NCBI GenBank assembly: GCA_017506865.1
Contig: JAFCMP010000011.1
Coordinates: 372,001 to 436,000, forward strand
DNA: 64,000 nt
Direction of reading: 5' to 3'
From: Tribonema minus
Taxonomy: Eukaryota > Sar > Xanthophyceae > Tribonematales > Tribonemataceae
Shown here: in pieces, positions 2,237-61,300 of the stretch
Layout: each line of letters begins with the position of its first letter
How positions within the stretch are numbered: the stretch's first letter is position 1
Program-made: the position numbers and the translations under genes
The notes under the pieces: generated by a model
The model's database searches: none
Seen by the model: only the letters and a program-made list of their open reading frames with translations
Told to the model about the DNA's origin: nothing

Positions 2237-5200
2237 ATGACGAGCGTGGCGCCGCAACAGCAAAGCAGCGCGACACCAGCAAGCATGCGCTATACACTGG
2301 TGGAGGCGGAGCCCGATACACCGCAGGACAGGTGGAAGCGGAAGGGCAGCACAGGCAGCGCCACAGGATCAACGGGAGCGTCAAATGGAGGCAGCGGCAG
2401 CGGCAACAAGGGTGGAGGCGGTGACGGCCGCAGGAATGATGTCAGGAATGATGCCGCTGGCTATGGTGAGACCCGACACTGCATCATCCTTCATGCGCAT
2501 CCACTCTATGAAGCTCATAATAGTGGATGCGGTTCGGCAAGACGTCGTGGGCAAGTGCTCAAGGCGTCGGCGAATGCAAATCAGCTGCTCACGAATGACG
2601 TGCGTATGTGCACAACGAAAACCCACACCAGGCATATGCGAACTTCAACCTCCGTGTCCGCAACATGGTCATGCCTCGGAGGTACATCGTGTTGAACTGC
2701 TGCTAAAACATGCCGCCTTGGTTTGATGTTTGCTTCAAGCTTTCACAGGGTGCGTGGTTTTCACTGTTGCGAGTTGACTTGACACACCAGTAATACCTCA
2801 AAACCAAACCTGAACATATGTATATCCTCAGTTTGAGATGACACTTTCAGCAAACACGCGCTACATAGGTGCGATGCGGACAGCTGAAGCATTGTTCAAT
2901 GAAGTCCATGATATCAATGCAGGCAGAATGCATGTGACCTCAGGAGCTGTTTGTTTGGACTCATTGACTTTGGCGCTATTTGAGTTAGTGGGAAGATGCG
3001 TGCTTAGGCACCATGATATTTTGCATATACACGACGGCTGCGCAACGTCAATAGCTGAGGTTGATGATGCCACCTTCCTTTGGCTGTCTGCCAGATCAAA
3101 CATGGATGCATTGCGGCATTCAAATCGGCAACACCTTCAAGCTCAGTTGCCCCAATCTTACACGCTGTTGCATATCGCCAGGGCTAGCGTCTAAACTGAA
3201 CTCTTGCGCCAAACATGTTGCGCAGTGTGTTGCGCCAGTTGCGCCAGCTGCCCCGGCAAGTGACTCGTGGTGCAACTGGCGATACTCGCACATTTACTCA
3301 TGAGTATTACCTATACTCGCGAGTTTACTCACGAGTCTTGCCTAGGGTTAGCGCAATTAACTAGGGTTAGTCATGACCTTAACCCCAAACCTAACCGGTG
3401 TGTAAGCTTTATGGGCCTTAATAATGACTGTAGAAGCACTAGAAGCCTTAATAAGAGTTGCGCCAGTTGCGCCATGGCTAAACTAGTTTAGCCAGGGCTC
3501 GAAACCCAAAGTCAGTTGCGCCAAGGCCGCCTGAGTTTAGACGCTAGCCCTGCATATCCCCGCCTGAGGAGATAAAGCTCGCCACCGTGCCAGAGATGGA
3601 CAACCAAGGGACCCAAGCAGACACAACACTCGCGGCTAGTGCATGTGTTGCTAGAAGTGGTAATTGACAACCCAGGAGGCAAACATGAACAGCCACGTCA
3701 GTGCTCAACAGGACCCAACCTCAACATGAGCTGAGCTGTGCGCTGTCACCGCCCAAATCGGCTCTCAACTTGCTGTTTATGCTCTCGCATGGGCTGTCAT
3801 ACCAATATGAGCTTCAATTGTACATGTTCCAGGTTCAGCAAAATACTTGCCAAAATTAGCGTTTGTGATCTGGCACAACATCTCACTCAGCTACCTGAAT
3901 CGCATGAAGCCATACTCAGATACTGCTCTGACAGAAGTTTGCAGCAAAGTGCGCAGGGCACCATTTACCATATACATAGTTTTGCGGCTGGCCCATAGTT
4001 TTGAGGCTGACTCATGTAGGTATGGGGCCGCCTGCAGCACACTCCATGGTATGACAGCTGTTGACAAACGCCATCCCCAAGCCAGCCAACTGATGCATTC
4101 TGGACTATGTATGTGTATGAGTCTGCAGTACATACCTTGAACATTTATGTACCAGCTTGAAATATACGGTATTCATACGCGGTACTTTACAGTGCAATAT
4201 TCGTATCATCCGCGACACACTGCCGCGTGGAAACGAAGTATGCAGCTTGACACCTTCCACCAATTGCATGGCGGACAAAGTCAAGAAACACCGCAACCTG
4301 ATTCCATGCACAATGCGTTTCCTCCTACGCTCCAAAGGCAGGGGGCGGGGTGCGAGGCGCCCTGGCCGGGGGCCCCCAAACAGGGGGAGGGGGCCGCACA
4401 TGGGGGGTATGTATCCGGAGGGTGCTGGCTGCTGGGGAGGCCCCAGCTATATGGGCGGCACCAGCTTCTATGGGGTGCCGCCGTCGGATGCCAGGAGGAT
4501 GATCGCAGAGCATGCTGTGCACCAGGTGCAGTCTGATGATTAGTGTAGGCATGTCTAGTATTGACGTCATTATTTTCAGTCATACCGTTGGATGCTAAGA
4601 GGATGATCGCAGAGCATGCTGTGCACCAGGTGCATTTGACACATTGTTTTAGTGTAGGCATGTCCAGTATTGACGTCATTGTTTTGAGGTATATTGAGCA
4701 GCGTGCCCTGCACACTTGGCGCTCACTACGAACTGAATGAATTGAATTGCTGTTGCACTAAGGGAACCAACCGCCAGAGGATGATCGCAGAGCATGCTGT
4801 GCAGCAGGTGCAGTTGAAACGTTGTTTGAGTGTAAGCATGTCCAGTATTGACATCATTGTTATCAAGTATAATGAGCACGAAGATCACAACTGGATGTGA
4901 ATATGCTGCTGTGGTAGATGAAGCGCCTGGCACTGGATATTGCGCAAGACCTGATGAGGCTGGAGTATATACCTTCTTAAGTACAAGCTTCCGTGCAGCA
5001 ATTGCGAGCGTCAACATCAAGGCAAATGCGGAGTACATGTACCTTCAAAACGCTGTCAAGTACATGGGAAATGTAGTACAGCAGCACTAAGTCTGGCTGG
5101 CGCATGTCATATCACGCTTCCCGAGCTAGTTGAGATTTGACGTGCTGGAAGCCAGCCTTGTTCAGCATCAATGCTGTGGCAATCGCTATATACACCTAGC

Positions 5201-8038: not shown

Positions 8039-9085
8039 TTGTGCCCTTCACCGCATGCGCACCCCCCCTGTGCTTCATTCAGAGTAGAATGCCCGGAGGG
8101 TTGGTGTTTGCTGCCGAATTCCAACGCGCGCTCGAGCCTGGTGGTGCTGCAGCATTGTTCAGCGGCCTACAACTGCCCTCCTGCAGCTGCCTTGGGACTT
8201 GACTTGACCTGAGCTCTACAGACTCGTATTCAAGTACGCAGGTACAAGTCGATTGGCGGCCTGCCTAGCTCGTGCTGTAGCGAATGTCCGTTGCATGCAC
8301 AGACGCTTCACGAGCTGTCAGAGTTTACGGTTGCAGCGACAGCCCCCCCGCCTGATGAGAGTTCGCCAACACAGGAAGAACAGGAAGAACAAGACAGCAG
8401 ATGATTTGCGTATGGCCTATACGTTATGCAGAGGCGGGGGAAGGGTGTATTTGTTGGCAAGGGCAGTGGTGTTGTGTTGTGCGCATGCGCGCGCGGGTAG
8501 GTAGTATTGGGGATGGAGAAGCAGAACCAGCTGCAGATCACAGGACAAACATACCTCGGAGTACCATGGCACCAGCCTACAAGGGTCGTACAGCAAGGGT
8601 GCTCAATCTCTTTCCGCTTGAACTCCTGTTCCAATCAGTGCCGCAACTGGAAGTGATTCGCAAGGCAGTGACTACAGTGCTTGTTACATGGGTCATTTGT
8701 TACAATACACTTTTCGTAGAAGTATGCTGCATGTGAATGCGCAGCATGTGTGTGGCCGCATTTTGTTCGCTGGCTGGCATTTAGTTTTTTGGATCGATGC
8801 CATGATGCCAGCCTTGCGAATGGTTTGCGTGGTGCGGCACAGTGACTGCGACTCATCCACTTCACCTACCTACATACAAGATGAAAAAGCAAACCATTTG
8901 CAGATGCTGAGATAATCATGCAGTACTTGGCTGCCATCTGCATGACCTTTGGGGCACACAATCAGCAGCTTGAGACAAACAGCCATGCCCCGCATCATAC
9001 AGTCTCAGCACACAAGCTCCCGAGATCTCAGTGCTTTGACGTGTCGTTCACATGTACGACTTGAAGACTCAGACTCAGAGCGCTG
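8039..9085. other. Convergent intergenic region, LARP and OSCP1 3' ends
   Basis: This lies between the LARP stop at 8038 (+) and the OSCP1 stop at 9086 (-). It should hold both 3' untranslated regions. The ORFs here are compositionally poor and no further gene is supported. Confidence 0.5.
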
Positions 9086-12000
9086 CTACTTCAACGAGTC
9101 CATGAGATCCAGCAGATCATCTCCGCCCTTGCACTCCGATGCCTTGTCCTCTGCGCAGCGTCGCGGCAGGGGCGTGCGCTGTGCAGTCTCCTCTTCGTCG
9201 TCGGAGCTCCAGTCGTCTATGACCTTTGCTGCCGTATCGCGCCCTTCCTTGAGGTCGATCGTGATTGTCTGCATGCCAATGGTGCATAAATACACGCACG
9301 GCGTTGTGACATGTGATATGTATGCATGCGCTTCGTGTTGGTCACTGCTGTCACAGTTGTTTGGCGCCCAAGAGGTGCATACAACCTAGGGCATGCGCGA
9401 GCACCTCACAGCACTACTTCAAGCATGCCATGAAGCTTGTATTGCCCTATGTTGCATAGGCCCATGGGCATCAATGAGGCTGGCCTTTATCAGCACATCA
9501 ATAACTGGGGATGTCGATAGCTCTTGTTGACAGTGCAATTAATTGCAAACACCCGTGCCGTTGGCATCTACTAGTAGACGAGCGTGCTGGTGCAGTGCTC
9601 TGAGTGCTGATCACGTGTGGTGCCCATTGGTGCTCGCTCGCTCAGGGCACGATAAGCCAGATGATCACTATGGCCTGCGCATGAGATGATCACTATGGCC
9701 CTTGCATGAGTCACACCTGCCAGGTGACTTGCGTTACCCTTGACGGGGCAGGCACTTTTGTGCACTACTTCAAATGCACAGTAGTCTGGAGCAAATGGAG
9801 TGAATGATCACTGCTTGTAGAGTGAGAGCTACAAATCTCTTGAGTAGCAGCAATGTGGTGGTCACCTGTGCCTCAGAGTGAGAGCTACAAATCTCTTGAG
9901 TAGCAGCAATGTGGTGGTCACCTGTGCCTCATCCCCATCTTTGGCCTGAGCATCATCAGGAAACAGGTTGATCTTGAAGCGGCCATGCCTTCCATCGTCT
10001 GCTTGTTTAGATCAAAGAAGGCAGCAAACCAAACCACGCACGGTTCAGATTGAGTCGCTAGGACCGCAATAGAGATGCTGTGGTTGTCAGTGGAGGATGA
10101 ACAAGCTTGTGTTGGGGTGAGGTTTAAGCGTATAGTCTCCTGACAGTCTCCGCCTGGGCTGCAAGCTCCATGTGCCACCTTGGACCACATTGGTATGACT
10201 GCTGCATGTCAGCCAGAGATTGCGCCGCGTGTGGCTGCACACCAAGACCATCACCCCCTCCTCCTCATGCCCCCTGCTGGTGCCTGGTGTCTGGCTTTAT
10301 TTTTTGCCAAAAGTGCCGAAAACTTTGAAACAGGAGGGTAGCAGGTTGCAGACACAACCACGCTCTCAATGTCTGCAGATGATGACTCTCTAGGTATCAA
10401 TCAAGCGCGCCGTTGATCAGTAGTTGCCCAAAGCAAGATCAACAGCAGTCCAACTGCAGTAAGCAGAGCGTACCAGCGTAGACTACAGGCCTGCACAACA
10501 GTTTGCAGGTGCAAACTGCAAGTACTGGCAGAGCAACAAGATGGGACAGGCACCGGGCCGCTCGCTGCAGCACTGATGCTGGTGCAATGCAACAAGGCGG
10601 CAGGCAGCCTGGTTGAGGGATACAATGAGACCCGAGCAACAGCTTGGACTTGCAATTACCGTGCACAGTTTATGAGCATCGCGGCGGTTTCAACTCAGGG
10701 TCAAGAATTACCACTGACCTAGCATACGGTGGTGTCTGGCAATGAGCCAGCATGGCGTTACCCCTCTGCTGAAATGCCGGCAGCCTCCAACACATAGAAG
10801 CACTTCTGAGGAATAGAACCAGCTTGCGGCATCTGACAGGTCATGAGAATTCCGCAGTCGCACACCTTTGGTGGACGTGCCGATGAGTGATGCCAGTATG
10901 TTGAGCCCTGCAACAGCTGAATGCTGAGCGCTGTCACCACTACTAGTAGGGCTCGCCAGAGCCTCAGAGGCGCTGGTGTTGTAGGAGCGCGAGTGCGCCT
11001 GCGCTTGGAGCGCTTGCAGCGCACTCTGCCGCAGCGTCAGCTCCGCCTCGCGTGTTGCATCACTGCGACGCAATGAGCACGGTGAAGTTGATGTTCTATT
11101 GTTGAAGAAGACACGCCATCAGGGGATGGGGGCAGATGCGAGCATGCAAACGTGGTCATCATCCTTCGAGCATCTACCTGCGCCTGCAGTGATGAAGACA
11201 CTTATTGAGTTGCTGTCCATCATCAAGTGACCAACGTCTGCAGCAGCTTCTTGATTGGACGACAGCAGTTGACCAATTGGCAGCATTAAACCCCCCAGTT
11301 GTAGAAATTGTCATCAGGCTCGACGTTTTACGACGGCAGATTGTCATCAATGCCAAAACGAGTAGGTGAAAGCTAGGTTCTGCATGCCTTGATGTAGTAC
11401 AACCCATAAACCCTCTACTGCTGCTGCGGTTCACCACGACTGCCAACCCCTTCCGCACTCAGCTGCAGTGCACCCAGTGGGCACGGCTAGTGGAGCACGC
11501 CACACGACTACTGGCGGACGCCACAGACAGTGCATGTGAGGCGGCACGGGTGCGCCTCCACCATGGTGCCGGGGCGTTTGCTCATCAGGTTTCTCAGACT
11601 CTAGTGCAGCGCGGCTACAGGCTGCTGCACCTGCTAGCAGCGATGGCCTTTGGTAGGCAACCGGAGGGAACCGGTATGCCGCCTGCGGCCCGGCTGGCAG
11701 CGTTGCTGTCTGGCGACTTCGCGGAGCTACTGAGAAAGACGCTGTCAGCAGCAGCGGCGCTGCGGGCCCCCAAACCAAACAACGCAGCTATGGCGTCGGC
11801 ACAAACGAACTTCGATGCCGACTGGACGGAGGCTGACTCCAGGCAGCAAACAGCATGCGCTGCCCTCTCAGGCAAGCGACGGGGGGTAGGCTTGGCTGCC
11901 GCACGACTAGAGGCGCGTGAAGCATGCGCCCCAGCAGACGAGGTCACGGCACAGGTGCTGGCAGCAAAGCACCCTGAAACTGGCACCCGGCCGGGGGTAG

Positions 12001-15000: not shown

Positions 15001-18000
15001 ACGCGAAAGTCAAGCACCACACCGGCACCTTGACGTCATCTTGGGCTTTTGTGCCATTCGTGCAGGAGTCGTACGGACGGCTGGGCAAGCAGACAAGCCT
15101 TTTTGTTAAGGAGTTGGCAATGCACTCAGCACTGTGCTCAGGGGGGGGGAAGGCAGATGTGTTACGCAAGGCCGGGTTAGCTAAGCGTCAGATCCTCATT
15201 GAGCTGAGCATATCGCTGGCGCGGGAGTTGGCGGAGCGCGTCATGGCGTACACACGTGGAGCGCGAATGCTGGGCTGTGTTGCGGCGCCGGTATCCAAGC
15301 TCCTAGGGCACAGCGCAGACTAGGCTGCTGCGTTGACGCAAGCTTTTCGATTGCATAGGCAACCCGGCCTCCCTTGGGCCTTTATAATACAAGTCCATAC
15401 GTACAACCCATAAAAGATCGCTCTCAGTCCACTAGCGCACACTGTACTCTGGCTGTACTGCTGGACTTGTATTTTCCTGTACAGTTGAAGCGTGCTACGA
15501 ACGTGGTTTCTCGTGTCATGCCATAACATATGGGACAATGGCTGCTCAGGGGCCCTTGCGCAACTTCATTGATTCCAAGTACACCGGATATTCGGCCTCC
15601 CTTTGGGCCTTGGTACAAACGCATTGTTCTTTCTGCATATTCAGCAGTCACCTGTCAATACCCTCAGCTCCCGGGTCCAGAGCGCAAGCATCCTTGGCAT
15701 AGAAGTTCATGCCCAGAGGACAGCTCGGATCCAGGAAAGTCCGCTGCGCCGGCAGGCATTTGTCTGCGCAACAATGAAAGGGGGCAGGGCACAAAGTCAG
15801 CAGCAGTGTCAGCTGGGAAAGTGACCGGCACACTGTGTCATATTGTGCGACACTCCGTCCCCCGATTCGCGGTGTCAAGATAAGTGGCAATCTGGAGATA
15901 CAACGCCGGCGCGGTCTAGCTCAATTTGAGAACCACTCAATGCTAACACCTGCACCACACGTCATCTTAGCATTGCTCACCATATTGGGTCATGAGTTAT
16001 GAGTCATGAGTTATGAGGTTATCAACATTCAGTGCTCAGAGACCCTCCGCATCATGATTTTCAAGTGCTTGGTGCATCAGAGTGTCTGCTGCGGCAGCAT
16101 GAGGAGCTGGGTCAGCAGCACAGTGCCACCAGCACAACTGCACTGCATGAGAGCGTCCTCACAACTCATTGCAGTCGCTACAGTTGGTGCCGTCGCCCTG
16201 TGCACCTCATCACTGTGGTATCGCCACTGTGGTGTTGTACTTCAAGTGTATCTTCACAGCAGTGCTCAACCATCGCAACTCACCCGCAAGAGGCATGCGC
16301 ACTAGCCGAGCGTGCGCCACGTTGCTGCCCTCGTAGAAGGTGATGGTGCCGGGGATCTGAGGCATGTTGAGAGAGCAGGCGTATGTAAAGGCAAGAAATA
16401 GATCATGATCTGCAGTTGCGGACGTGCAGTTTAGTGTTCACGTCCACTGATACAGCCACTCATCATCCACGCATCTTGACGTGGATGGGATTGATATGAT
16501 GTGGCAAAGTATGCGTGTGTAGTGGCGCACAACAGACGAATTCTAGGTGTACAATACCACATGCGGAGATGATTGTAAAGCATGGACTGTGGTCAAGCAG
16601 TGATCAACGATATATGCTCGCATTATTGGACATGTGGAGTTCGGGTAATCCTAATTACACTCAACTGCGGCTTCACGCACACATGAGTCGTTGATGCAGG
16701 CAGCTAGCAGAGTCTCATCAGCTCGCTTCAGAGGCAGACAATCCGGTACGTACCTGACCTCCTTTTGGCACGTTTCCTCTGGGGTTGAGCACTATCACGC
16801 CATCATTCCGCTGCACCTCGTGCTGCAGGAACAAGCTGACCTAGAACGGAAGGGGCAGACATCAAGCAGCAGCAAGCAACATCTTAGATGTACCCACTAA
16901 CTATCCTGCACTAACAAAAGTTCTCGCATTGTACGCTCAAGCACCCATTTGGATGCGTAGCTCAATGACTGCTGTCACTGCATTCTTACCAGTGTCTACA
17001 AGCAGTTGGTATTGACCAGGACGTCACACGAACTCAAGTCATCTTGAGAACAGCCCCTGCAGACACTTCGCACCAAAAAGAACATGGCATAGTCTACTCT
17101 GACAACAACCACTTTTGCTGTCACTGCCCAAGACGCCAACATCTTCTTGTTGCTGACTGCAGCACCTTGGCTGCAAGCACTGTGATGTAGCAGTATGGCA
17201 ATAAGAAGTCTTTATGTAAAGCTGAATGGTAGTGGTAACCTTCACCTAGCAAGCCAAGCTTCAACAGAACCATTGCTCACTTGAAGTATCTTCAACTTCA
17301 CCTGTATACCACACAGCGCAGCCGCCCCATATCATCCCGCTGCAGAATTCATTGACTTCACGAACAGCAAAAGCGGCTCCCCGCAACACAATGACGCCAC
17401 CATTCCTGCTGCATTTTCAGCCCTGGCCCATTGATTAATCAATACTTTGGTAGCTTTAAGTCTAGGCCTGTTCTGACCTTTGTTTTCCGGCCCTCGAAGA
17501 ACAGCAGCAGCTTCTGTCGCAACTCGAACCACTCGCCAGAGTCAAAAGCGCCGTACGTCGATATGCACAGTGAGATGGTGGCCACCAGAAGCGCCTGCAA
17601 CACAGTGCACATATCAGCATCAGTCAAGAACAGCAAGGGCCTGTTGCTGATCGTGCGCAGCGCCTGCACTTCATCCTTTCAACGAGCAGCGCTGATAAAA
17701 GCTGTCTATGAAAACGGATCGAAAGATCGTACAGCTTCTTTTAGTACTTTGCATCACTTAGACAAAGTGGCGCTTCAATTCTATTTGATTTGTGATTACA
17801 TTGCGCCCAGGGAAGTCCATGGCGAGATAATTGCGCACGAGTCAGCACAATGCAGCCTGCCTGGCACTGTCTTTGTTGTTTGTAATTGTCACACCTTCAA
17901 GCTGTTCAACAGGCAACTATGGCCTGAATGATGGCAGTACATTTGATGATGACTGGCTCTCGCACAGTCATAATCCCACTTCGTGCTCCGACTTGTATGC

Positions 18001-21000
18001 CTCAGAGGTAGCATCACAAGCACAAAGAATTTGCCAGACACAGTGGCCCTTCAGTTCTATTTGCCAGATTCGAGATAGCCAAATAGCCTTGCAATCGGGG
18101 CAGCGCATCGCAAGATGATTGACCAAGAGGCAGCACAGTGCAGCTGCGTGGTATTGTCTGTGTTGATTACAGTTGTGACACATCTGTACTGCTCAACAGT
18201 CAACCATGACCTGACTGTCTGGCAAGCACATAATGATTGGACTAGCACAGTCGTGATTCCACTGACGGCTTTGACTTGTATTGCCTCAGAGGTAGCATCG
18301 CAAGCACAAGAATGCTGCCTGGTGATTCACGTCTAAGTATTGTCTTCGCTGATTGCAATTCTTGCAGTGTGACACCATTGTGCTGCTCCACAGTGAACCA
18401 TGGTCTGAATGTGTGGCAATGCATATGATGATTGACTGGCTGCAGCACAATCCTGTTCCACTAAAAGCGTTGACTTGTATTGTCTCGGAAACAGCATTGC
18501 AAGCGCATCGCACCCGCCTGATGAGCACAGCACTCCTCAGTGGAGGTTGTGAGTAGACTATATCGACCTACCTCTGAAGTGGCGTCAGAGGCGCACAGAA
18601 TGCGCCTGATGGACTCTAGGTGGTTCAGCAGCACCTGCATGAGCTGGTGAGGCTGGTTGACCTGAATGACCTGCAGTACAGCACAGTACAGCCACAGCAA
18701 AATGGGTTCTGTCAACAATATGCCTTTTGAGAGCATCATGCATATGGACACTCTGTATATGGACACTCTTACGCCCTGGCCCACATTCAAAGTTCAAGGA
18801 GTTCTGTGCCCGTTGGCATCCTGCTTGTAGCGCATTCAAGCACTGCCCTGGTGGTGTTGGGGATTATCAACATCTCAACACCTTGTCTACGGCTGAAATT
18901 GGGCAGGCGCTGCATCAGACGCTTCTATTAACACTAGCACTTGACAACAACGGCGTACGGGTCAATGATTCATGCTTCAAGTTTTGAAATATCATATGCT
19001 CATCTCACCCCTGCCACTATGTGAAGTACCACTCAGGATCACTGATCACTACGACCATATTATGCTGGGTCCTGAAAGAAGACAAGCAACTTACCTGGAA
19101 CTTGAAGCCCATTGTAATGAGGTCATACAGCTTGTCCATGGAGTTGTCATTCAAGCACATGATGCTGCTGTGCGCCAGTTTCTTGAACACCTGCAGAACA
19201 CCAGCGAACGAGCAGCCGGCATTAAATCACAGCTGTAGAGTAGAAAAATATAATGCCCGGATGTACCTCCTTTACTTCCACTGAAGTGGTGGAAACCTTA
19301 CGACTTATGCAAGGCAGGCAGCTCATGTGCTCGTGCAATGCGTGTGCTCACAACACAGCATATACTGACCATTGCAGCATGAGGCAAACAGACAAGCAGT
19401 AACAACATACTTCCGAAGTACAAACACACAACGAGGATTGTAATCATACCAGGACGACAAACACATAATCCTTCACCAGCAACTTTGGTGGTATACTCCT
19501 GTTGACTTCAAAATTGTGAGAGCTGCGGGGCAGTCGAATCGTGACTTCTGCAGTGGACGGAATGAAGCGCGGCAGCATCACTTAACGCATTAGCACGACC
19601 CGTTCGGGTTTGGCAGTACTAATTCAATGGATCAGTGCGCTTGTGACTCTCCCTACTATGGCTTTGCAATCACTTCAATCGGCGTTGAGCTGAAAGTACT
19701 GTGTGAAACGAAAGCACTTCTGGAAGCCTCAAACCAGGGAGTGAGCTACCAGGCACAGCACCGCTGTCACTAACCTGACGTGTGTCCTTGCTTGAGTAGG
19801 GCTCCTGTGGCTGAAAGAGAACATCCTTCACAAACTGCACGGGTACGAGCAGCGCAGCGGGACGCGATTGTTTCAGGATCAAGCATCATGGCCACCAACA
19901 GGCAATCGATGATACAAGGTGATAAGCTTGCAAGGAGGCACATGTCTTATCCGTCATGCTAGTGTCCGCACTGAGAAAGTCTACTACATGACTGTGCTAC
20001 GGCTCAGAGGAGAAGAGGTGCAATGAAGGCCAATTGGTGCAGGGACTGTAGCTGGAAAACATGCTTGCAACGCACCACACTCAAATCGGCATGCAAACAG
20101 CATCTCATGCAGTAGATATTGACGTGAGTGCAGGCAGTCCACATATGATAAAATCTGTGGCTGTTGTCTCAGCACTCTACACCTTCATCATTGCAACCTG
20201 TGGCACTGTGCTGCATAATACTTCCGGAGTATATTAATTCGCCCCATACTACATACGCACGTGCTTGCAGTGGCTAGCCTACCACTTGAAGTTGAAGTTG
20301 AAGGAGCGCACGCCTCCGCCTGGCGTCCATGCGAAAGCGCAGTATATGCATGGAGTTGGTAAGTACGCACATGCAAGCCAAGCTCAGCTGTGGTGCTTGC
20401 TGATCCATGCTGAGACCGCGGCTAGCTGCAAAGAGTGGCCAGTTGCCACTGCACTGGCTACCCCGCATGCACTCGCTGGCTGCGCTGAAGAAACAGCAAG
20501 CGACACCGCGCTGACGTGCGCTCAGGCCACGAATGCTTCCAGCCCTTAAGATTTGACCCCACCTGACCATGTCTAGACCAGTGCTAATACCGTGCGTACC
20601 TCTGTGGCAAACATGGTGCGTGTCACGTCTGCCAGCACCCTGTTGGACTTGTCCTCGGGAACGTTCTGCGCCAGCAATCTCTGCACACAACACAAATAAT
20701 TGCAGCAGAAGCACAACCAGCAAACGCCGAAGCTTTTTCGTGAACGTTTTCCTGCTTCAAGTACAAGTATGGCGATGCCGTTTAGAAGTAATCGGCAATG
20801 CGCATCGAGACACTTTTAAGGAGTTCACAAAGACACATGTAGATTCTGGTTGCAAGTCCATGGATATCCACCATCTGGGCTTTTTCGCGCCCTGAGCGAG
20901 TATTTTAATTGAAAAGTGCAAGTATGAGCCCCTCCACATCTGGTTGTGTAAAGCGACCGGCCATGAAGGCTGTAGACGCAATTGCATGCAAAACGAATAC

Positions 21001-21556: not shown

Positions 21557-21803
21557 GGCTCCCACCTTGTGCTCTCAAGTATCCTGAGTACTCAACCAAG
21601 CTGGCGGTTCCACCGGCGCGCCGCGCGCTGCAAACTTGAACTCGTGAGAAGTGTTTGCTTGCTTAGCTCACCAGTACCTAAGCGTTCAAGGAGCTGGCGA
21701 AATAGTAGTGGCAGCAGGAGTCGACCAGCAACGCCTGCGCCTGCCTCACCGGCAACCAACACCGTCTTGATCAGTCTGCAAAATATACTCTGAAGAAGAC
21801 AGA
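21557..21803. promoter_or_regulatory. Short divergent promoter, OSCP1 / VDAC
   Basis: Only 247 bp separate the OSCP1 start codon (minus) from the VDAC start codon (plus), so both 5' leaders and core promoters must fit here or overlap. No TATA box stands out. Shared or coordinated expression is an inference. Confidence 0.6.
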
Positions 21804-39913: not shown

Positions 39914-40077
39914 GTGCGCGGTTGATAGCAGAGCACACTCCGCTAATGCCTGGCTGTGCTGTGTGGGTGCGCTCCTGAAGAGTTGCACACGAGAAAGGTG
40001 AAGTTCGCCTCAACTTCAAACAGTTGGACCAAATTTAGCTCTCTCGAGGCCTTACGACGCGAACAAGAGCAGCAGGG
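39914..40077. promoter_or_regulatory. Very short divergent promoter, STK19 / SGTA
   Basis: Only 164 bp separate the two start codons, so leaders and core promoters are shared or overlapping. No TATA box was recognised. Confidence 0.65.
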
Positions 40078-43000
40078 ATGGCTGCTGACCCCAAAGCCAT
40101 CGCTTTTGCGGTGGTGCAATACCTAGAAGGACTGGCAGGAAGCAGCGATGGCGCTGTTGACGACGTGTCCCAGCTGACAGCGGCAGCCACTGCCCTCAAG
40201 TAAGCGAGCAAGCGAGTTCACAGGCCTCATGGCTGTTGCTGCTACTGCTTGAGCATCGCAGCGTTCTTCCTCAAAACTTCAGAATGCACGGCTTTCTGTT
40301 GATGTGCGTTGACTTTGCGTAAAGGTGTGATTTCATGATGGTAATCTCGTCTTCATGCTGCGACACACGACACACAGGGCGGCCTTTGGGGTGGACACGG
40401 CGGATGCGGCGCAGGCCAAGGAGCTTTCCTACGAGCCGGCCACGCTTGACTCTATCTTTGCTGCGGGCGTCAAAGCCACAGGTGCCCGAAGACATGCTTC
40501 GCCGATAAGCTCATGATTCCTTCGTCTCGGATCTTTATTACCACCAAGTCCAATTTATTTGTGTTGTTGAAACCAATGCCTATCATTGACCCAGTCAATC
40601 ATGCAGAGCGGTCAGGCTGTGACAAATCGGTTGTCATCAGTGACTAGCTTGGACGATGTGATCGCCATATTCAGCTTCTACAGACTTCATCAAGTTGATA
40701 CATAGCGTTGCACGTCCAAAAAAGCGCAGATCGCATGAGTATATTGTGCCAGGGAATAAGTCAGTGAATCAAATGAATATTTGAAGCGCAGTTTGACAGT
40801 GTCCACCGCGAATAAGCGCATGCTTTGGAGGGCACCTTTTGGTATCGGTAGTGTCAAGGCACACACATGGCGATCGCGCTGCTGCAGTACATACATGTTT
40901 TGTACGTGCAAATACTTGTTTTCATGACAGTGTTGTTCATCCACTGCTGCATGTTACAGCATGACCTCAAGCTGCAATACTACAACCGTCGATATGCTAC
41001 ACATGATTTGATGCATCAATGCACTGCTGATCCAGTGTGCACTGCGATAGCAGGGGTTCAGGACGATAACGGTACGGTATACTTCCACATAGCTCCACAT
41101 TGTTCCAAATTGTGCTCATGAAATATGCTACACACCACCCGTTTCACACAAGCACACAAGATTTACCAAGATGCATATTTTGTGGCTGCCAGGTGCGGTG
41201 ACGGCGTTGCAGGAGCGCGAGGCCATGATGCAAAACCCCCTGTTCAAGAAGTTTGTGGGGGTGATATCTGCAAAGGCGCCTCTGGCAGCAGAGGGGACCC
41301 CAGAGTATGATGTACAGATGAACAAGATCATTGCCACTTTCAAGACCAAGTTTGGCAACAAGGTACGGGCAGGTTTCTTGTACTGTTCCGTATTCAAGTG
41401 CATGAGCATGTGCAACGCTGTCTGATCGACACCATGCTTGTCTGGCATACTGGCAGCAGCCTGCATGGTGATATGCATGCTGCCACCGCCATTGCCATCA
41501 TTGCAATTGATTACTGCACGGTGTGTGTATGCTGTCCCAGAGTCTGCGCTGGCACTGCAAGCCCAGTGCTGCTCATCTAAGTGCTCTCATTGGAATGTAT
41601 GTATACATATATGCGCGTGCCAGGCAGCACCTGCACCCGCTGCACCTGCGCCGGCGGCTGCTGAGGAGGAGGAAGAGGAGGAGGAGGAAGCTGACGAGGA
41701 GGAGGAGGAGGAGGCGGAGGATGAGGTGGACCCTGAAGCAGGTCAGAGTCAGACTCAGAGTCAGAGCTGTATGTATGTATGCATGTATGTAGGCATGAGT
41801 CAGTGATACAGGTGATGTTGGTATCAGGGAGAGAAGGAGGAGGAGGAGGGGGAGATGAGGTGGACCCTGAAGCAGGTCAGAGTCAGAGTCAGAGGTCTAT
41901 GTAGTCATGAGTACCACTGCTGGTCAGTGGTTATGTAGGTATGAGGCAGAGAATGAGGAGAAAAAGGATGCGGAAGGTTAGAGGGTATGTATGTAGGCAT
42001 GGCTACTTCCTAAGCAGTCTGATGGTGAAGCAGGTCAGAGGGTGTATAGGTATGAAACAAAAAGCGCAACAGGTCAGCAGGGATATGAAGGTATGATTAG
42101 TGTATAATGCAAGCCAATGGAGGAACCGCATCATGAGTCATGATAGATGAAGGGCGACGTTGTCATTGGAGCGGGAATACGGCGAGTGTGGTGGGGGTTT
42201 CACCAGCAGAATTGGCGTCAAGTGCATGATGTAATGTGCAGCATGCAGCGAGTGTGGTGGGGGTTTTACCAGCAGAATTGGCGTCAAGTGCATGATGTAA
42301 TGTGCAGCATGCAGGGGCAGTGCATGTGTGTGTTGATAGCTTTGGGTCTGAAAGTCCGGGATTATCTGCATGTCATTCGATTAGTTGGTTGGTACTTTTC
42401 CAGGTCACTGCCACGACAACAAACATCAACCCACACAAGGACGTGACAACGGCTGCTGTGCTGTGCACTTTGGTCACACCAGTTTGTGTCAACATCTGAT
42501 AGTATTGCTGACTACGGAAAGTTGACCCTCTTGCAGCGGATTCCGGTGGCCTGGCAGCTGTAATTGGCCAAATTGCACTGTGGTGATGAGCATTGCGATA
42601 ATGAAACTCAAGACAGCCGTGGAGGCCTTTTGCAGTGGCGCCTGACGTCATGCCGTTGACGGTGGATGTGATGACAATTGAAAAAATTCAGCGCGCTTGC
42701 ATTGTGACGTTCGGGATCCAGCAATTGCAATGCAAGCACTGATGCTTGTAAGCCTCAACCGCTGCACATAAAAACTGCAGTATGAGCCAGGGGTGCGAGG
42801 GACATGAAGTACAGTAGTGGCATGCGTGCCGCTGGTACGAATGTCGTACACGTCTACTTATTACCGCACAAACATCACCAGCGTCCTCAAGAGTCATCTA
42901 CAAGAGCAAGAGCGCATACACATGAAACCACATGCAACATGGGGTGTCTGGGTTTGAAAGGCGGCAGATTGTATAATGTTGTTGAAGTCCAACCTTCAAC

Positions 43001-46000: not shown

Positions 46001-48338
46001 TTGTTGTATTCTGTGATGGTTGCTTTTGTATGCACAGCGGGGTGCGGTGGATACCATAGATACCATACCTGGTACCCATATATGCCTTGCTACCGCCACA
46101 ACCACCCTTTGTGCATCTGAAGCTCTGTGCATCTGAAGCCCGAGCATGCCACCTTGCCAAGCTGACTACCGTATGCTATAACACTGTGCAGGCATGCTGG
46201 GGGGTGCAGGCGGAGGCGAGGGGGGTCTGGCAGGCCTGCTCAACAACCCTGCCATCATGAAGATGGCACAGGACCCCGCAGTCATGAAGATGGCACAAGG
46301 TATGTAGGTGTCGTCACGTCGGTCACCTTGAGAACATGAGAGCAAGCAGTGAAAGTATGCCTTGTGGCACAGTGGCATGAGAGTTGTGAACACAACTAAG
46401 CAGGGCTATCCATAGGGGGCTGCATGCCATTTGTTGAAGCAGGGTCGCTCGCTGGCAGGACATCAAAATTGTGAACCACCAGACAGTGTTTGACGCGAAC
46501 TTAGTTGATGCTGGGGTCACATGGGAGTTCAGCCACCATGAGACGTCTGCCGGTCTATGCAGTCACTGCGACGCTAGTATGCCTTGTGGCGCAGTGGCAC
46601 CAGAGCTGTCAATGCACCCTGCACACTGGCACATTGTGAACCTGGCAGCATTGTCAGTGTGTTTACCTGCACCCCTGTAACCTGCAACTCGCTGCTGTCT
46701 GTGTTCTCTGTGTTGACGCATCGCAGGCATGATGTCAAACCCGGCCATGATGGCACAGATGCAGCAGATGATGGGCGGCGGCGGCGGTGGTGAGTTCACA
46801 TAGCAGTCTGTTTCATCTGAAGTCAAGTTTAGCTCTCAACCTACCTGGTTTGGCTACATCTAATTGTGAAAGACTCGGCTGACATGATGCCATGAAGGCA
46901 CATGCAATGGCGCCACATTTATCGGTGCTTATTCAGTGTGCCGTTCGCACAGTGCTACCCCTAGCACTTTGAGGCATCTGCATGTAGGCAGACAATGGCG
47001 CACAGGCAGGCATGATGCGGTGCAGGTGGAGCGGCTATGGGCGTGCTACTTACTTCTACTTTGGTCGCTTTCAAGACAACAGGTGCTTTCTTTGTACAGC
47101 GCCCTTCCCAAGCCTCGTTTGCGCACATTGAGCAGTGCATGCACATTTTGAAAGATTACTGTAGTGCAGGATTGTGGCTCCATGTATGTGCACACTGCGC
47201 GGTCATCCACGCTCAACTGCGACACTGCTTGTTTTTGCCATCAGGCATGCCCGACATGAGTGCTTTGGCTGGCATGATGGGCGGCGCGGGGGGTGCGCCA
47301 GGGGGCATGCCCCCGCCCCCTGCATCGGGCAGCAGGGGTGCTGGCATTCAGGATGTGAGTAGAGTGATGCTCTAGTTTTTCATATGTTTTGATTGTGTTC
47401 TACGTGTCATCGACATGATAGTGTATATGCCGGGGGGCATGCCTCCGCCCCCTGCATCCGGCAGCAGGGGTGCTGGCATCCAGGATGTGAGTAATATGGT
47501 GCTTTGGTTTCTCATGTTTGATGTGTTTCCACGCATCATCGCCATGATTGTGTATATGCGCAGCACATCTGGAATGCATGGTTCTGTCAGGGTGTGAGTA
47601 GAGGCACACGCAGAGACCATCTCGAACTGCATGCATGGAGCTGTTGGGATATCAGTGAAGGCGCATACACACAGAGAGAAGGAGAGATGAGCTGTTGAAT
47701 GCATTTTGTGGTCACCCTGCACTCAAGCACAATGAAGCATCAGGGTTGCAGGGTCCATGTTTCACTCAAGCACTTGAAAAGCATTAGGATTGACGCGTGG
47801 GATTCGGCAAGTGGTGCTGTAAAAAATACAATAGTATCATTATTCCCCTTGTTGCGAATGTAAGTACTGATTGCTGATGTTCAACACGTGTGTTTTGTGT
47901 GCAGGATCCGGAGATGATGGAGCTGCAGGAGCTGATGCAGCGCGAAGGCCCAATGGCAGCTATGCAGAAGGTCAGGACATTTGAATTCTGTACCTCTTTG
48001 CATTCTAACCTGTACTTCAGATTAAAACTTGCTTCAGCGCGCTTAGTACCGCGCCTTGCACTGTTCAAGGCTCGCGATGGCCCGGTATGTGTGGTGCGCA
48101 TGTGATAGACTCAATCTTCCATTTCCGCAACATACCTTTTGTAGCATCTCTATTCACGCACTCTGCATGCTGCCCTTTTTTACATCAGCGCGGAGTGACG
48201 CAACTCCAGGGCCCCAACTGATGCTCTTTGTCCCTCTTCCTGCATTTGCATTTGCACCTTCAGGTAGGAAACAACCCGCGGCTTCAGGCCAAGATCATGG
48301 AGATGATGCAGAAGGGTGGCATGGGGGGCATGTCATAA
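40078..48338 (+). CDS. SGTA: SGTA/Sgt2-like TPR co-chaperone, 14 exons
   Basis: Exons are 40078-40199, 40378-40481, 41193-41362, 41624-41741, 43185-43231, 43567-43670, 44361-44453, 45133-45187, 45649-45802, 46192-46299, 46727-46789, 47245-47354, 47905-47970 and 48264-48338. All phases agree and give 462 residues. Residues 1-75 match the SGTA/Sgt2 dimerisation domain (AFAVVQYLEGL, AAFGVDTAD, LDSIFAAG). Residues 133-171 form an Ala/Pro then Glu-rich insert unusual for SGTA. Three TPRs cover about 175-300, with EGNEYIK, HCNRAAAR and YARLGYAYY carrying the Asn and Arg residues of the Hsp70/Hsp90 carboxylate clamp. The Met/Gly/Asn-rich tail has NNPAIMKMAQDPAVMKMAQ and MMSNPAMMAQMQQMM, then a DP-type end (DPEMMELQELMQREGP, NNPRLQAKIMEMMQKGG). 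Such proteins pass tail-anchored proteins to the GET/TRC pathway. The STI1-like final module resembles Hip/Hop. Confidence 0.94.
41700..42045 (+). repeat. Copies of SGTA exon 4 end plus donor
   Basis: The exon 4 end (GATGAGGTGGACCCTGAAG then CAG|GTCAGAGTCAGA, donor at 41742) recurs almost exactly at about 41833-41893, including the preceding GAGGAGGAGG run. A shorter copy (GGTGAAGCAGGTCAGAGG) lies at about 42024-42041. Both are in intron 4 and retain the GT donor. Confidence 0.9.
42183..42314 (+). repeat. 66-bp tandem duplication in SGTA intron 4
   Basis: Two units, 42183-42248 and 42249-42314, beginning CGAGTGTGGTGGGGGTTT and ending GTGCAGCATGCAG, differ at about one base. No exon sequence is included. 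Confidence 0.93.
43240..43269 (+). repeat. G-rich tract just inside SGTA intron 5
   Basis: G-runs ending in 13 consecutive G (43257-43269) lie 8-38 bases after the exon 5 donor (43232). G-runs near donors can enhance splicing in other eukaryotes; a role here is inferred. Confidence 0.8.
47297..47600 (+). repeat. Copy of SGTA exon 12 end plus donor and intron start
   Basis: The second half of exon 12 and its donor (GGCATGCCCCCGCCCCCTGC ... GCATTCAGGAT|GTGAGT, donor at 47355) is repeated at 47428-47488 with few changes, followed by the same intron sequence (CGCATCATCGCCATGATTGT versus a similar block near 47405). A third, degraded end lies near 47560-47598 (GGGTGTGAGTAG). The period is about 133 bp. 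Confidence 0.9.
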
Positions 48339-55300: not shown

Positions 55301-58300
55301 GGCTGACGCATCAATAACCGCACCTGTCATTGGATTCCCGGCATGTAAGCATACATGAGACCTGACGCTGAGCCTCGTGATTTGACAAGCAAGTGTGGCA
55401 AATTTTCAATTTTACATCTGTTAACTTGCATGAACGCATAAGGTGCCAGTAGATTTTTGCAGCGACATGCTGCTGAGTGAACTTCAGCATCCAGCGACCA
55501 TCTGGTAAAGCACTACTGTTGAGGTTTACAATCCTGACAACCAGTGATGCGCTGCAGCACAAGAGCGGCCAAGTCCACTATTGTGAAGGCAGACCAAGAC
55601 GCAGCACAAACTCTGTGCGGCCTAACGGCCGCCACACCTGTAGGTAACTGCACTTTCAACACGCACTTAAATCAGAACGACACAAGCGACGACTTGTTTG
55701 GACAGTCCCCGTCGGAGACACACTGTCATTCCACAGCAACTACCTATTTCTAGAGGTAATGCTTGACCCTGTACGTTGAAAAGTTGAGGTTGCATAGTTG
55801 AAGTTGCTCACCTGCACCGTGCGGGCCCGCAGGTGTACTTGTACTACCGGCACCCGCAAAGGACCTCAGCTGGTCAGGGGTGCTGCACGTGAGCATGCGC
55901 TTGGCGTCTTGAGCCGTGAGCAGCGGCTGTGTCACCGCAACCATGTCCTTCATATGAGCCTGGTTGAAGTGGGGCATACAGCAAGCATGGGATTGTAATT
56001 AGAGCCCGGATGCAAGGAGCCACTGCAAGTAGGTGTTGCACCAATGACAAAACAAAGCAGTGGCTGTGTCGCCGCAACCATGTCCTTCATATGAGCCTTG
56101 TCGATGCAGGGCACACAGAATAGAGGGGATGAGATAAGGATGACAAGGAAAGTTAGAGTACTAGTTGCTGTGGTTGTGCCCTTCATGTGAGCCTTGTCAA
56201 ATTGGGTCACACAGAGGGCATGAGATTGAGATTAAAGCTAGGATCACTGCAGTAGGTGCTGCAACAACAACAAATCAAAGCAGCGGCTGTGCCACCGCCA
56301 CCATGTCCTTCATGTGAGCCTTGTCAAGGTAGGGCACATAGCAAGCATGAGATTGGGATTAGAGCCAGGATGCAAGGAGCAACTGCAAGTGGGTGTTGCA
56401 CCAATGACAAAACAAAGCAGTGGCTGTGTCACCGCAAACATGTCCTTCATATGAGCCTTCTTTGAGAAAGGTCACTTGGGAGGCATGGAGTTGGGATGAG
56501 AGGGAAGGTGAGATGTTTGATTGTGCATTTGCAACACGTTGAGAGTTTGTCGCCGCAACCATGTCCTTCATATGCGGCTTATCAAAGTAGGGCACATAGG
56601 GGGCATGAGATTGAGATGAGAGGGGAGGTAAGAGGCATAGTTGTTCTTCTGGAACACACGTTGAGAGTGTGGTGCCGCGGCCATATCCTTCATGTGAGCC
56701 TTGTGTGTTCAAGTAGGTCAGCGGGGGTAAAGTTGGGGTAAAGGTGAGAATGCAAGGAGTCACTGAATCTGCAGAGACTAGGGAGAGGTCATGGGGCACA
56801 GACATGCTCAGGCTGTGTGACAGTGAGTGTGCAACAGTCAATGAACATCAAAAAGACTGTGAAGACACACACGCGTATTGTAACCCTCGTACATCTGCCT
56901 ACTACATTGGTGAGCGCACATAGACAGCACTCAGCGCATGGCTGTTGAAGCATGGATAATCAGTCTCTACCAGCCTATACCTACTGACGCAATGGACTTA
57001 AACCTCATGCGTGCACTTCAAATTACTCTTCAACATATATACTTCAAATACAAAAGTAATCTCTCACCGTGTTGATGCTGTCTAGTCGGTGACTGCGCAG
57101 TATCTCCCGCAGGTGCGATTCTTGCGAAGTCATGTATTTAGTGCCGTGGTTGTCACCCATCTCCGCACCAAGCGCCAGCAAAACCTGAGGGCCATGAACA
57201 CAACAGTGCAAATTAGTTTTGCAATTGACTGACGATGCTGCAAATTGAAAGGTGACCAATTGATTTTCTCATTGATGATGCTTCCAATTTGATGGTGACC
57301 ATGCGTTTCTTTTCCAAGCGCCGATAAAGCCTGTGCCTTCAAATGACATCATTACATCTTTATCAAGAAACTGCACAATCTTCTCAGTGTCACGGAGAGA
57401 AAAGCTGGCAACGGAGTGGTCGGTGAGACAGCGCAGATAGCTATCGGGTGCATCAACAAGACGAGCAGCCACGGGACAGTGTGCTGCATTGCTGTAGCAT
57501 GTTATATGTCAGGTAACTTGCGTCAGAAGCGCCCAAACTCAACTGCGGGCCCTAATGCATGTCAAAAAGTCTGTCATCGAATGATGTGCCGGATCCTTTG
57601 GCAACTTCCAGGCCAACCGCAACAGGGGCGAATGCCATGTTAACAAGATGAAGCGTCTTGATGAATGTAACTGTTTGGTGCACACACTCACTTCATGTCC
57701 CTTCATCTGCTTCAACAGAGCCGCGAGAACAGATGCCAGCCACACGTCATGTCATTTTGTTAAAGTGAGATCGCACATACTGTACATACATACCCTCTTG
57801 GCTCGCAGCACACCCAGTGCAGCCACAAAGGCCTTGTTCTTAGCCCCCTCCTCTTCAGGCTGCTCTGCGGCTGGCGGTGGAGGCAGGATAGCTCTGAACC
57901 CCCTCCGCTGCTGCAGTCTGCATGGCATACAAGGAAGAACATGTGTGTGGCGCTCTCAATGACAGCATCGTGTTAAAGCCATGTCCCTTGAAGTATGCAC
58001 AGTGAGTAAGCAGCTCATTCCGCATCACATCAGCGTTGAGGGTCACATACTCAGTATCTCCGATACGCAAGTGGTCCGTGCCCTTGACCAGCATCACATG
58101 CTGCAGCAGAGCAACATTTGATGGCATGTATATAGATGTACCGTGATGTGATGCACCTATGCTAGTGCAACAACACCTAAGGTGGACCATGGCATACAGC
58201 AGCACTTGCACATGGCCCTACCTGCTGGTATGACTTGTCTCCTTGTCCCCTGACCCCAATTGGAATCTTGATTTGACCCTAGATAATCCTAACCCTCTTG

Positions 58301-61300
58301 GGGAAGAGTCAAACTGGTGCTGATGGCAACGATGCTGGAGCACAATCTAGCACTGTTGACTGCAGCTCTACATAGATGTGTCCGCTAGCCAGGCCTTCAG
58401 GTCACATAGAATGAGCCAGCGTTACGCCTCCACCTTGCGGGTTTGATAAAAGGTGCATGCGACAATGTCAGTCAGCATCACCATAATGTGCCAGGGTTGT
58501 GGGAGCTGCAGTCCATCCTAGGGGTACCAAAACACAATTTGACTTGCCCCACCTGAGCATCTGGAGCTGGCGCAGGTGCTGCAAGTGGCCCGCTTCCAGC
58601 ACACGTGCGCGTTGCTCTTCTTCCTCATCATCTTCAAGCAGAGATGGCTGTACACAGGGGCAGCAATGATCAAGGTTAGAGCTGGCTTTGATGTGGGGTG
58701 ACACTCCTACTCCTGTGATGTTCTTCATCATCTTCCAGCGAGACGGCTGCACATATGTAGGGATGGCAACATTCAGCAACTTCAGGCAAGTTCACCTGCA
58801 GGCAATCACGAAGCGCAGGCTGCTGCTTGCATGTCGCATTCAGAGGGTGCTGCAGTGAAACTTTCCAAGGTAGACAGGGGGTTGCTGAGCTGGGAACTGG
58901 TCATTGAGGACTGTTGTGAGATTCAATGGAGCACAGGTCGAATGCATGCCAATGTTGGCGACATTGTCGGCAGCTCGGAAAGGTGTGGGGTCATGCTCAT
59001 GGTCAAAGGGCATGCATCTGCAAGGGCACAGGTGTGTGCTGAGCACTGGACTGCTAATTGAGCAGTGTTGATTTGGGTGAAAAAGTTACTTGCGGCATTG
59101 CAGACGTTCCTCATCATCCTCCAGCAAAGAGAGCCGCAGACAGGGGTTACAGTTGTTTTGGTGTGCGGTGACCCTCCTCTCATATCCTATAGGGTGATGT
59201 GTTGAACTTCTGCATTGGTCATTTTGCCAACAGAGAGACGACTGCAGATGCAATGGCAACATCTAGGCTCAGAGTGCCACTGCTGCAGATGGAAAATGAC
59301 GCTTATCTTTGGAAAGTGCAAGACGCAGCGAAAGCTGAGGTTGGAGCACATTGACTGCAAGTTGATGCTGAATGCGCAGCTGATTTTCTGGAAAGGTACC
59401 ATCACTCACTTGATCCCCCCTTGACATCATGGATGGAGATGCCCACGTGCCTGACTCAAATGACTGCCGCATCAGCAGACACAGCAGCAGCACAGCAAGG
59501 GGGGAACGGGTAGGGGGTAGGTCTAGGGTAAGGGTAAGGGTAAGGGTAAGGGTTACGGTCACTCGTGCTTGTTTCCTGTATGTGGTGATTTGATGCTGCT
59601 GCCTGCTGGTGTGCGACATGTTTTACTGCTTCAAGTACGCCTTGGTGCCTTTCAAACATACAGCTCTTAGTGAGGAAAGGCTATTGAGGCTTAATGCTAC
59701 ACCGAGGGTTGCTGCCGCTTCCGGTAGCTGTGCCTGCTGCAATCCTGACCAGCTCTGAAGCATCTCGACACTGTGACTGTATTCCAGAGCACCTCGACAC
59801 TCTGATTTTACTCCTGTCTGAACCCGTTGGCATCCCCTGTTCCAGCCTTGCGCTTGGCACTGGGCAGATGCACATGATGACATGCGTATCTTCCCTTGTA
59901 AACATACGCGCTCGGCTGAGCCGAGAACAGACTTCATGCACCGGTGCTGCAGGAGTTTGCCTACACCACCGGTTTTTCACTTCTTGACATATGGCTGGAA
60001 AGTGGTTGCGGAAGTTCAATCATGGGACCATGAAGTTGAGGCGATGAATTTGCAGCAAAGTCCCCATACAAATATGCACTCGTCAGCTGACGTGCCCTGT
60101 GGATGCCGGTGCGAGCTGACAGAGTAGCAGGATGACATGTGCGGCAGCTGTTTTTTTCCTATTGTACAGCACAACAAAGCCAAAGCTGATTCTGGCTTAG
60201 AATGATCATGATGCTGCGACATCTAGCATTTGTGCATGTTACCGTCAGACTACAGGAAACGCGCAAAGACACAACCGACTGTGCACTGCAACATCATGCG
60301 CACCTGTCGCCGAGGTGACCCAATGGACAAGAAAGATGCCTGCCGGTTCATCCGCTGCAGTGATGGGGGGCGCTTCTTGCGAAACCCTGCCGCTGCAGCC
60401 AGTGGAGAGCCCGGTGGTGCACCAGTGCTCAGCACGCCTGCCATCACAGGGCTCAGCAGAGTTGCAACAAATGTGCATTTGAGGGCAATATACGCCGTAT
60501 ACACGCTGAATACACGCCGTATAGATATACGGGCCATTTTGAGAATAACAAGAGCTGCACGTACCGGAGGTGCACCAGTGCTCAGCACCCCTGTCATGTC
60601 ATCGGCAGAAAAACATAGTGGGTTGTGTATGAAGCACTTGCTGTGCTGTTCAGACTGATGACTGCAGCCAGCAGCGAAGTTTCATTGCAGGCAATACAAT
60701 CGCTGTGCATGTCGGTCGAGGCAAGTACTACCTGATTCAGAGCAAATGCGAACGGCAACAATGAGTGTCTATGACAGGTGCCAAATGTTCAACTTGTCTT
60801 GAACTCCTAGCATACACAGAGGGTACCTTCGACAACATTATGGTGATACAACAGTGCTCAGTAACATCGAATACAGATTTAAAGCATATTTGCTACCTTG
60901 AGGAAACCCACTTTGACTACTACAGTGCTGCTCAGCAGTGAAACCCAAGTACTCATGTTTGTGAAGACAATGTCACACCTTGCTGCTGTTGCTGCTGTTG
61001 GGACTGAGGCACCGCGTGGCCCTGCTGCAGTTGCTGTTGCTGCTGCTGCCTCACACGTGCAGCGATAATGGCTGCGCGTTCGATGCGCCACCAGAGCAGC
61101 CGCAGAAGCTCCAGACGTGCCGCCTTGCAGGCCAGGTAGTCTTTCACATAGCGCTGGCTTCGCACAACCAGTGTCCGGAAGCGGTTTATTCTCGCCTTGT
61201 ACCTGGCATGCACATGGAGCGTACACACCGATGCCCTTGTGAACATCAAAGTCGTTTGGACGTGGTCTGAAGTAACTCAAGCAAGCGATTGACTGACTAC

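What the first reader, a model, noticed from the sequence alone, without database searches (positions are those of the whole stretch)
4489..60602. Recurrent tandem arrays that copy exon-intron junctions in five neighbouring genes
Nine separate loci in 64 kb show the same design. A block made of the last or first tens of bases of an exon, its splice site and the adjoining intron is repeated in tandem within the intron. Six span donors (LARP exon 2, OSCP1 exons 5 and 11, SGTA exons 4 and 12, VDAC exon 7) and three span acceptors (IQ gene). Copies range from identical (56-bp unit in OSCP1) to degenerate (about 220-bp units in OSCP1 intron 5), so the process looks continuous. It may be the main way introns lengthen here and supplies decoy splice sites. 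I know of no standard name for it. Function, if any (splice-site buffering, alternative splicing, U1 or U2 recruitment), is inference.
Basis: partly seen in the sequence, partly recalled or inferred. Interest (0 to 1): 0.9.

Follow-up and report, generated by a model that had tools for sequence, protein, structure and literature searches.

The report
Splice junctions copied into neighbouring introns
In this alga's genome, pieces of genes that straddle an exon-intron border are copied again and again into the adjoining intron, which lengthens the intron and fills it with decaying look-alike splice sites.

Summary
Units that hold an exon end, its splice site and some intron are repeated in LARP, SGTA (two introns) and, degenerately, OSCP1; other listed arrays are real but rest on exons that no database match supports. 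The same design recurs on other contigs: densely in VPS41 and CDC50 genes, and at conserved exons of three dynein heavy chain genes. Shuffled sequence gave no such pairs. In genes with Pfam support, 25 of 109 introns carry a junction copy. For units of about 59 bp or more, junction-spanning copies outnumber intron-internal ones beyond uniform placement (one per array 28 of 41; expected 9.5, or 14.9 allowing for slower decay of exon-containing pairs). Shorter units show no clear excess. The copies look like non-coding decoys: divergence is 7% at codon positions 1-2, 15% at position 3 and 16% in intron parts, and 9 of 10 gaps in exon parts break the frame. Decoy donors score as high as real ones. 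Best reading: recurrent local duplication by break repair or slippage, tolerated because splicing keeps the exon-proximal site, so introns grow. Splice-site buffering is not supported. No RNA was available, so splice-site use is inferred.

The parts
4481..4878 (+). LARP: three copies of exon tail + donor + intron start; real donor after 4525; copies 4481-4584, 4585-4688, 4773-4878
   Evidence: La domain
9819..9931 (-). OSCP1 (C-terminal part, exon read by eye): two identical 56-bp copies; 9 exon bases + donor in the unit
   Evidence: gene finder did not call this exon
17760..18507 (-). OSCP1: degenerate array of 195-276 bp offsets downstream of the exon 18571-18670; exon tail recognisable in a copy up to the donor
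   Evidence: Oscp1 domain
27915..28744 (+). VDAC: about 19 degenerate 30-36 bp copies of an exon tail + donor (real exon 27850-27931 not proved)
   Evidence: Porin_3
41696..41960 (+). SGTA: copy of 46 exon bases + donor (41741|41742) + intron start, offset 135, 78%
42182..42314 (+). SGTA: 66-bp tandem pair wholly inside the same intron (control type)
47297..47559 (+). SGTA: 132-bp tandem copy of 58 exon bases + donor (47354|47355) + 76 intron bases, 84%
55919..56704 (-). IQ-like gene: several copies (offsets 127-137 and multiples) of an acceptor with exon start
   Evidence: gene without Pfam match
60411..60597 (-). IQ-like gene: 34-bp pair, 91%, each with an AG acceptor (weak)

Best explanation
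Short stretches of genic DNA are duplicated locally and recurrently in this genome, either head to tail or as direct repeats with unrelated filler between them, as slippage or repair of staggered breaks would leave. When the stretch overlaps a splice junction, the copy next to the exon body keeps serving as the real exon end and the other copy becomes intron. It is not translated and drifts. The protein is unharmed, so such events survive, introns lengthen, and each intron gathers decoy splice sites that fade. Shown: the copies, their neutral decay, equal donor scores, other contigs. Inferred: that the exon-proximal site is the one spliced, the repair mechanism, and the reason for the excess over uniform placement, part of which is slower decay of pairs that contain a constrained exon.
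For: Clean homology cases: SGTA, LARP; dynein L016 with exon tail [24 protein letters not shown], donor, and three decoy copies, one with a 1-base deletion (PF03028 E=1.1e-30); L018 and L020. Excess of spanning copies: 71 of 116 against 28 expected; Pfam-supported genes 44 of 62 against 15.1 (23.6 with doubled visibility); one per array 28 of 41 against 9.5 (14.9). Decay in 42 clean events of 71: mismatches at codon positions 1/2/3 are 39/530, 33/535, 79/532, intron parts 298/1834; 9 of 10 exon-part gaps not a multiple of three. Decoy donor scores: median 5.26 against 5.36 for real, 0.79 for random intronic GT. Exact tandem arrays share only 0-4 bases beyond the unit (from coordinates). Filler can hold telomere-like repeats: 26 such loci in the block, 25 in introns or removed copies, 0-3 in five random sequences. 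Arrays occur once in the genome: 3 of 3 tested.
Against: Many VPS41 and CDC50 copies end 0-20 bases past the donor (13 of 28 donor cases), tighter than random breaks would suggest. Acceptor AG kept in 19 of 19 decoys against 165 of 206 control AGs (p=0.028). Youngest tandem-adjacent arrays are not junction-spanning. Short units show no clear excess. The gene finder is home-made and self-trained.
Confidence: 0.68

Rival explanations
1. Junctions play no part: tandem duplication is uniform, and junction-spanning copies only look enriched because pairs containing a constrained exon stay recognisable longer and because the gene finder is drawn to copies.
For: Youngest tandem-adjacent arrays: 0 spanning, 3 intronic, 1 intergenic. 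Short-unit arrays: 3 spanning, 26 intronic. Exon-part divergence is lower than intron-part divergence, as this bias needs.
Against: Dynein and SGTA cases need no gene finder.
Confidence: 0.3
2. The decoys are selected: they buffer, delay or route splicing (spare sites, recursive splicing at AG|GT, or recruitment of U1/U2).
For: All 19 decoy acceptors keep AG (p=0.028); decoy donors are as strong as real ones.
Against: Decoy GT is kept in 19 of 23, not different from controls (136 of 190; p=0.33); exon parts drift and take frame-breaking gaps; donor-type decoys come from exon tails and so bring no branch point or pyrimidine tract of their own (inference).
Confidence: 0.1
3. The copies are alternative exons (tandem exon duplication with exclusive splicing).
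For: The gene finder reads some copies as exons, and some decoys keep long open frames (L018).
Against: Only 2 of 176 collapsed events hold a whole exon; most copies carry one splice site; frame-breaking gaps.
Confidence: 0.04
4. The repeats are introner-like or other mobile elements.
For: The genome has dispersed repeats, e.g. a ~135-bp one at window 20768-20905 with at least 40 scored matches, and retroelements.
Against: The VDAC, SGTA and LARP arrays each match only their own place in the genome, and the copies carry the host gene's own exon.
Confidence: 0.02

Closest known systems
Neointrons and intron lengthening by staggered double-strand-break repair in Daphnia pulex (PMC4202315; passages seen)
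   Same: Direct repeats left by staggered breaks, repeats of terminal exon bases, and a passive trend to longer introns.
   Different: There the exon-derived repeats are 4-12 bp and belong to the birth of the intron; here copies are tens to hundreds of bases, recur in established introns and carry whole splice sites.
Intron gain by tandem genomic duplication of AGGT-bearing exon segments (PMC3443670 passages; PMC4974935 search listing only)
   Same: Tandem duplication that contains a splice-site sequence next to coding sequence.
   Different: There the duplication makes a new intron with repeats at both ends; here an existing intron grows and repeats at both intron ends are rare.
Direct repeats near intron splice sites (PMC11782384, abstract and outline seen)
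   Same: Direct repeats at intron-exon borders attributed to break repair at insertion.
   Different: 4-30 bp repeats that pair the two ends of one intron, not serial copies of one junction.
Introners (PMC9860276, passages seen)
   Same: Large-scale intron change in eukaryotic genomes.
   Different: Mobile and dispersed; these arrays are local and unique.
Dual-specific splice sites in polyubiquitin (PMC10809524, search listing only)
   Same: Repeated coding units whose borders resemble splice sites.
   Different: There repeats are coding units; here the copies lie in introns and drift.

Membership tests
Intron gain by tandem genomic duplication | The sequence around the donor is repeated around the acceptor of the same intron | tested here: not met
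   Score >=28 in 12 of 286 introns against 11 of 858 mismatched pairs, a small excess mostly in GC-rich simple sequence
Intron gain by tandem genomic duplication | The intron is absent in relatives without the duplication | not testable with these tools
   No relative of this eukaryote is held
Staggered double-strand-break repair footprints | Direct repeats of local sequence, adjacent or separated by filler | tested here: met
   Head-to-tail cases (LARP, SGTA) and spaced cases with unrelated filler (CDC50, VPS41)
Staggered double-strand-break repair footprints | Little or no microhomology at the break | tested here: met
   0-4 bases beyond the unit in five near-exact tandem arrays, from coordinates; slippage is not excluded
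Introners | Many dispersed copies in the genome | tested here: not met
   One match each for three arrays
Tandem exon duplication with exclusive splicing | Whole exon with both splice sites duplicated in frame | tested here: not met
   2 of 176 events hold a whole exon; 9 of 10 exon-part gaps break the frame
Tandem exon duplication with exclusive splicing | Copies appear in transcripts | not testable with these tools
   No RNA data

The most novel reading that the evidence does not exclude
The duplications are aimed at splice junctions: breaks or templated copying occur preferentially around spliced sites, so that a footprint of exon tail plus about 3-19 bases of intron is copied into the intron, perhaps through co-transcriptional R-loops or RNA-templated repair. 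The genome would then write copies of its own splice sites as a direct by-product of splicing.
Probability: 0.15. Interest if true: 0.88.

Novelty: new variant of a known kind. Interest (0 to 1): 0.66.

Why it matters
How introns lengthen, and how the spliceosome tells a real site from an identical copy tens or hundreds of bases away, are long-standing questions. Here about a quarter of the introns in the genes with homology support (25 of 109) contain copies of their own junction at graded ages, so one RNA experiment could measure how position, strength and decay decide which of two near-identical sites is used. It also gives a route by which duplication, not mobile elements, enlarges introns, and a hazard for gene annotation: my gene finder called many decoys as exons.

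Tried and rejected
A recurring GTAGGYATG word seemed to mark copy ends; counts were too few and not general. Direct repeats joining the two ends of whole introns were looked for and largely not found. The first codon-position and gap counts (63 of 71 events: 72/870, 63/876, 127/865; 3 of 39 gaps multiple of three; GT 22 of 28, AG 33 of 33) included intervals broken by earlier collapsing and were redone on 42 clean events. The gene finder's first versions produced tiny exons and decoy exons, hence the collapsing of copies before prediction. The keep-first/keep-last choice was noisy: the exon-distal copy was kept in 27 of 71 spanning events. The pair scan misses units shorter than about 59 bp (smallest offset seen 59), so short arrays were counted apart with TRF. 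A wider genome sample and the species name could not be obtained.
Full report
Setting. The window is part of contig C11 of an unnamed 158-Mb eukaryotic genome in 554 contigs. The genome encodes many chlorophyll-binding antenna proteins (92 exon-level matches of PF00504). For one of them the best PDB matches were multi-domain LHCI chains (9vfj), followed mainly by ACPI/CAC antenna chains. No RuBisCO small subunit family was found at E<=0.001. I take it to be an alga of the red plastid lineage; that the ACPI/CAC names are cryptophyte ones, and the inference from the missing small subunit, are recalled knowledge, and the species is not known.

Checking the loci. Self-comparison found 11 arrays in the window (46 pairs) and Tandem Repeats Finder adds shorter ones. 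SGTA was rebuilt by hand from 12 exons that join in one open frame and matches TPR, STI1 and SGTA_dimer models. Two of its donors, at 41741 and 47354, are copied with exon tail and intron start into the intron. LARP has three copies around the donor at 4525. The OSCP1 exon ending at 18571 has a degenerate copy above the random range. For 9819-9931, 27915-28744 and 55919-56704 the arrays are plain, but the exon is read by eye or by the gene finder only. Two further loci of 34-40 bp are weak.

Beyond the window. I took one 200-kb block of another contig (C445:800001-1000000) and trained a hidden Markov gene finder, written for this purpose, starting from the SGTA exons. Its predicted proteins were spot-checked with Pfam: VPS41 (1.1e-34 and 3.4e-16), CDC50 (4.7e-30 for the C-terminal and 2.7e-27 for the N-terminal half), an RRM protein (1.4e-19), OSCP1 (1.4e-46), VDAC (about 2e-15); a HEAT-like prediction had no match. 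In VPS41 the finder called the same exon end up to five times in a row. The block has 95 arrays in 233 pairs. Among 28 loci of about 3 kb that searches had brought in, one of them inside the window, 19 have arrays, 32 arrays in 91 kb, counting some arrays twice where loci overlap, and 0 pairs in shuffles.

Evidence free of gene prediction. Of 17 exon-level matches to the dynein heavy chain family, at least three have arrays over the end of the matched exon. L016...[30 protein letters not shown], then a GT donor, then three decoy copies, one with a single-base deletion. L018, reverse strand: GHWVLLQNCHLAIR and a donor, with three further copies, one of which reads AT where the donor GT was. L020, reverse strand: LTTEPHAAFPPVLLQSALK and a donor, with one shortened copy. 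At least five of the 17 matches lie in open frames of more than 900 codons, where no intron is near.

Is it more than placement? I undid duplications in silico, keeping the copy that gave the better gene score (18 events in the window, 158 in the block), predicted genes again and classed each kept copy. Window: 7 junction-spanning, 11 intron-internal. Block: 64 spanning, 34 intron-internal, 50 exon-internal, 2 whole-exon, 2 intergenic, 1 gene edge, 5 lost in later steps. Keeping only spanning and intron-internal copies, and placing intervals of the same length at random in the same gene, 71 of 116 span a junction against 28 expected. In genes with Pfam support it is 44 of 62 against 15.1; with one event per array 28 of 41 against 9.5. 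A pair that contains a constrained exon diverges more slowly and stays visible longer; granting a full doubling, the expectations are 23.6 and 14.9. The scan sees only offsets of about 59 bp or more. For 20-57 bp units TRF gives 3 spanning and 26 intronic arrays, so there is no clear excess. The youngest tandem-adjacent arrays are not spanning. I therefore hold the excess as likely for longer units, and its cause as open.

What the copies are. In 42 clean spanning events the exon parts differ at 7.4%, 6.2% and 14.8% of codon positions 1, 2 and 3 and the intron parts at 16.2%. This is the pattern expected when the exon copy in use is constrained and the other drifts: half the neutral divergence at positions 1-2, nearly all of it at position 3. 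Nine of ten gaps in exon parts break the frame, in 5 of the 42 events. Decoy GT is kept in 19 of 23, controls 136 of 190 (p=0.33); decoy AG in 19 of 19, controls 165 of 206 (p=0.028), a possible but thin hint of constraint. Decoy donors score as high as the exon-proximal ones (median 5.26 and 5.36; decoy at least equal in 16 of 23), far above random intronic GT (0.79). So sequence alone does not tell the spliceosome which site to use; position next to the exon body must (inference).

How they arise. Some arrays are head-to-tail (LARP 45+59=104; SGTA 58+76 against an offset of 132). Others, mainly in VPS41 and CDC50, are spaced: a CDC50 exon tail of 70 bases, donor and 10 intron bases recur 193 bases on at 91%, with unrelated sequence between. 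In 13 of 28 donor cases in the supported genes plus one HEAT-like prediction, the copied stretch ends 0-20 bases into the intron. Near-exact tandem arrays share only 0-4 bases beyond the unit (coordinates), and some filler holds telomere-like repeats. This fits repair of staggered breaks with filler, or slippage. The arrays are not mobile elements: three tested ones match only themselves.

How much it adds. Undoing visible copies removes 36-47% of the non-exon sequence of VPS41 and CDC50 but 4-10% in the window genes and the RRM gene; introns with a junction copy have a median length of 653 bases against 451. As older copies fade, these are lower bounds.

Literature. Ten searches listed no paper, among the titles and abstract starts shown, that describes serial junction-spanning copies lengthening existing introns; most subscription journals are not in the library. 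The nearest is the Daphnia neointron study, of which I saw passages (PMC4202315).

Verdict. A real, genome-scale variant of duplication-driven intron growth, non-adaptive on present evidence, with an open question of why junctions are favoured.

Noticed in passing
window 11370-15320 (+): A 1317-codon open frame with a reverse transcriptase domain (RVT_1, E=1.5e-7) lies within the OSCP1 region, on the opposite strand; near-identical pieces are read in the 200-kb block.
   Followed up: partly
window 20768-20905: A ~135-bp repeat with at least 40 scored matches (83-93%) on many contigs, inside the OSCP1 region.
   Followed up: no
window 23529-23594; L026-L045 (block): Interstitial TTAGGG/CCCTAA stretches, almost all in introns: one in the window and 26 in the block, 25 of them in introns or removed copies.
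   Followed up: partly
window and block: The word GTTGAAGTT/AACTTCAAC is strongly over-represented (10 in the window, 49 in the block), mostly in introns; it also occurs inside the L016 dynein array.
   Followed up: no
L019, L023, L025: Dynein loci with 75-79% GC and open frames above 1000 codons, unlike the 51-58% of the window and block: a mixed assembly or strong compartment differences.
   Followed up: no
G000:C70/C489, C296/C490, C79/C1: Antenna-gene matches with identical or mirrored positions and scores on pairs of contigs suggest uncollapsed haplotypes or recent duplications that would allow allele comparison.
   Followed up: no
L043-L044 (block 174017-181533): Genes with regular in-frame protein repeats (leucine-rich-like, and 265-270 bp repeats with regularly spaced introns) give many exon-internal and intron-internal pairs of another kind.
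   Followed up: no
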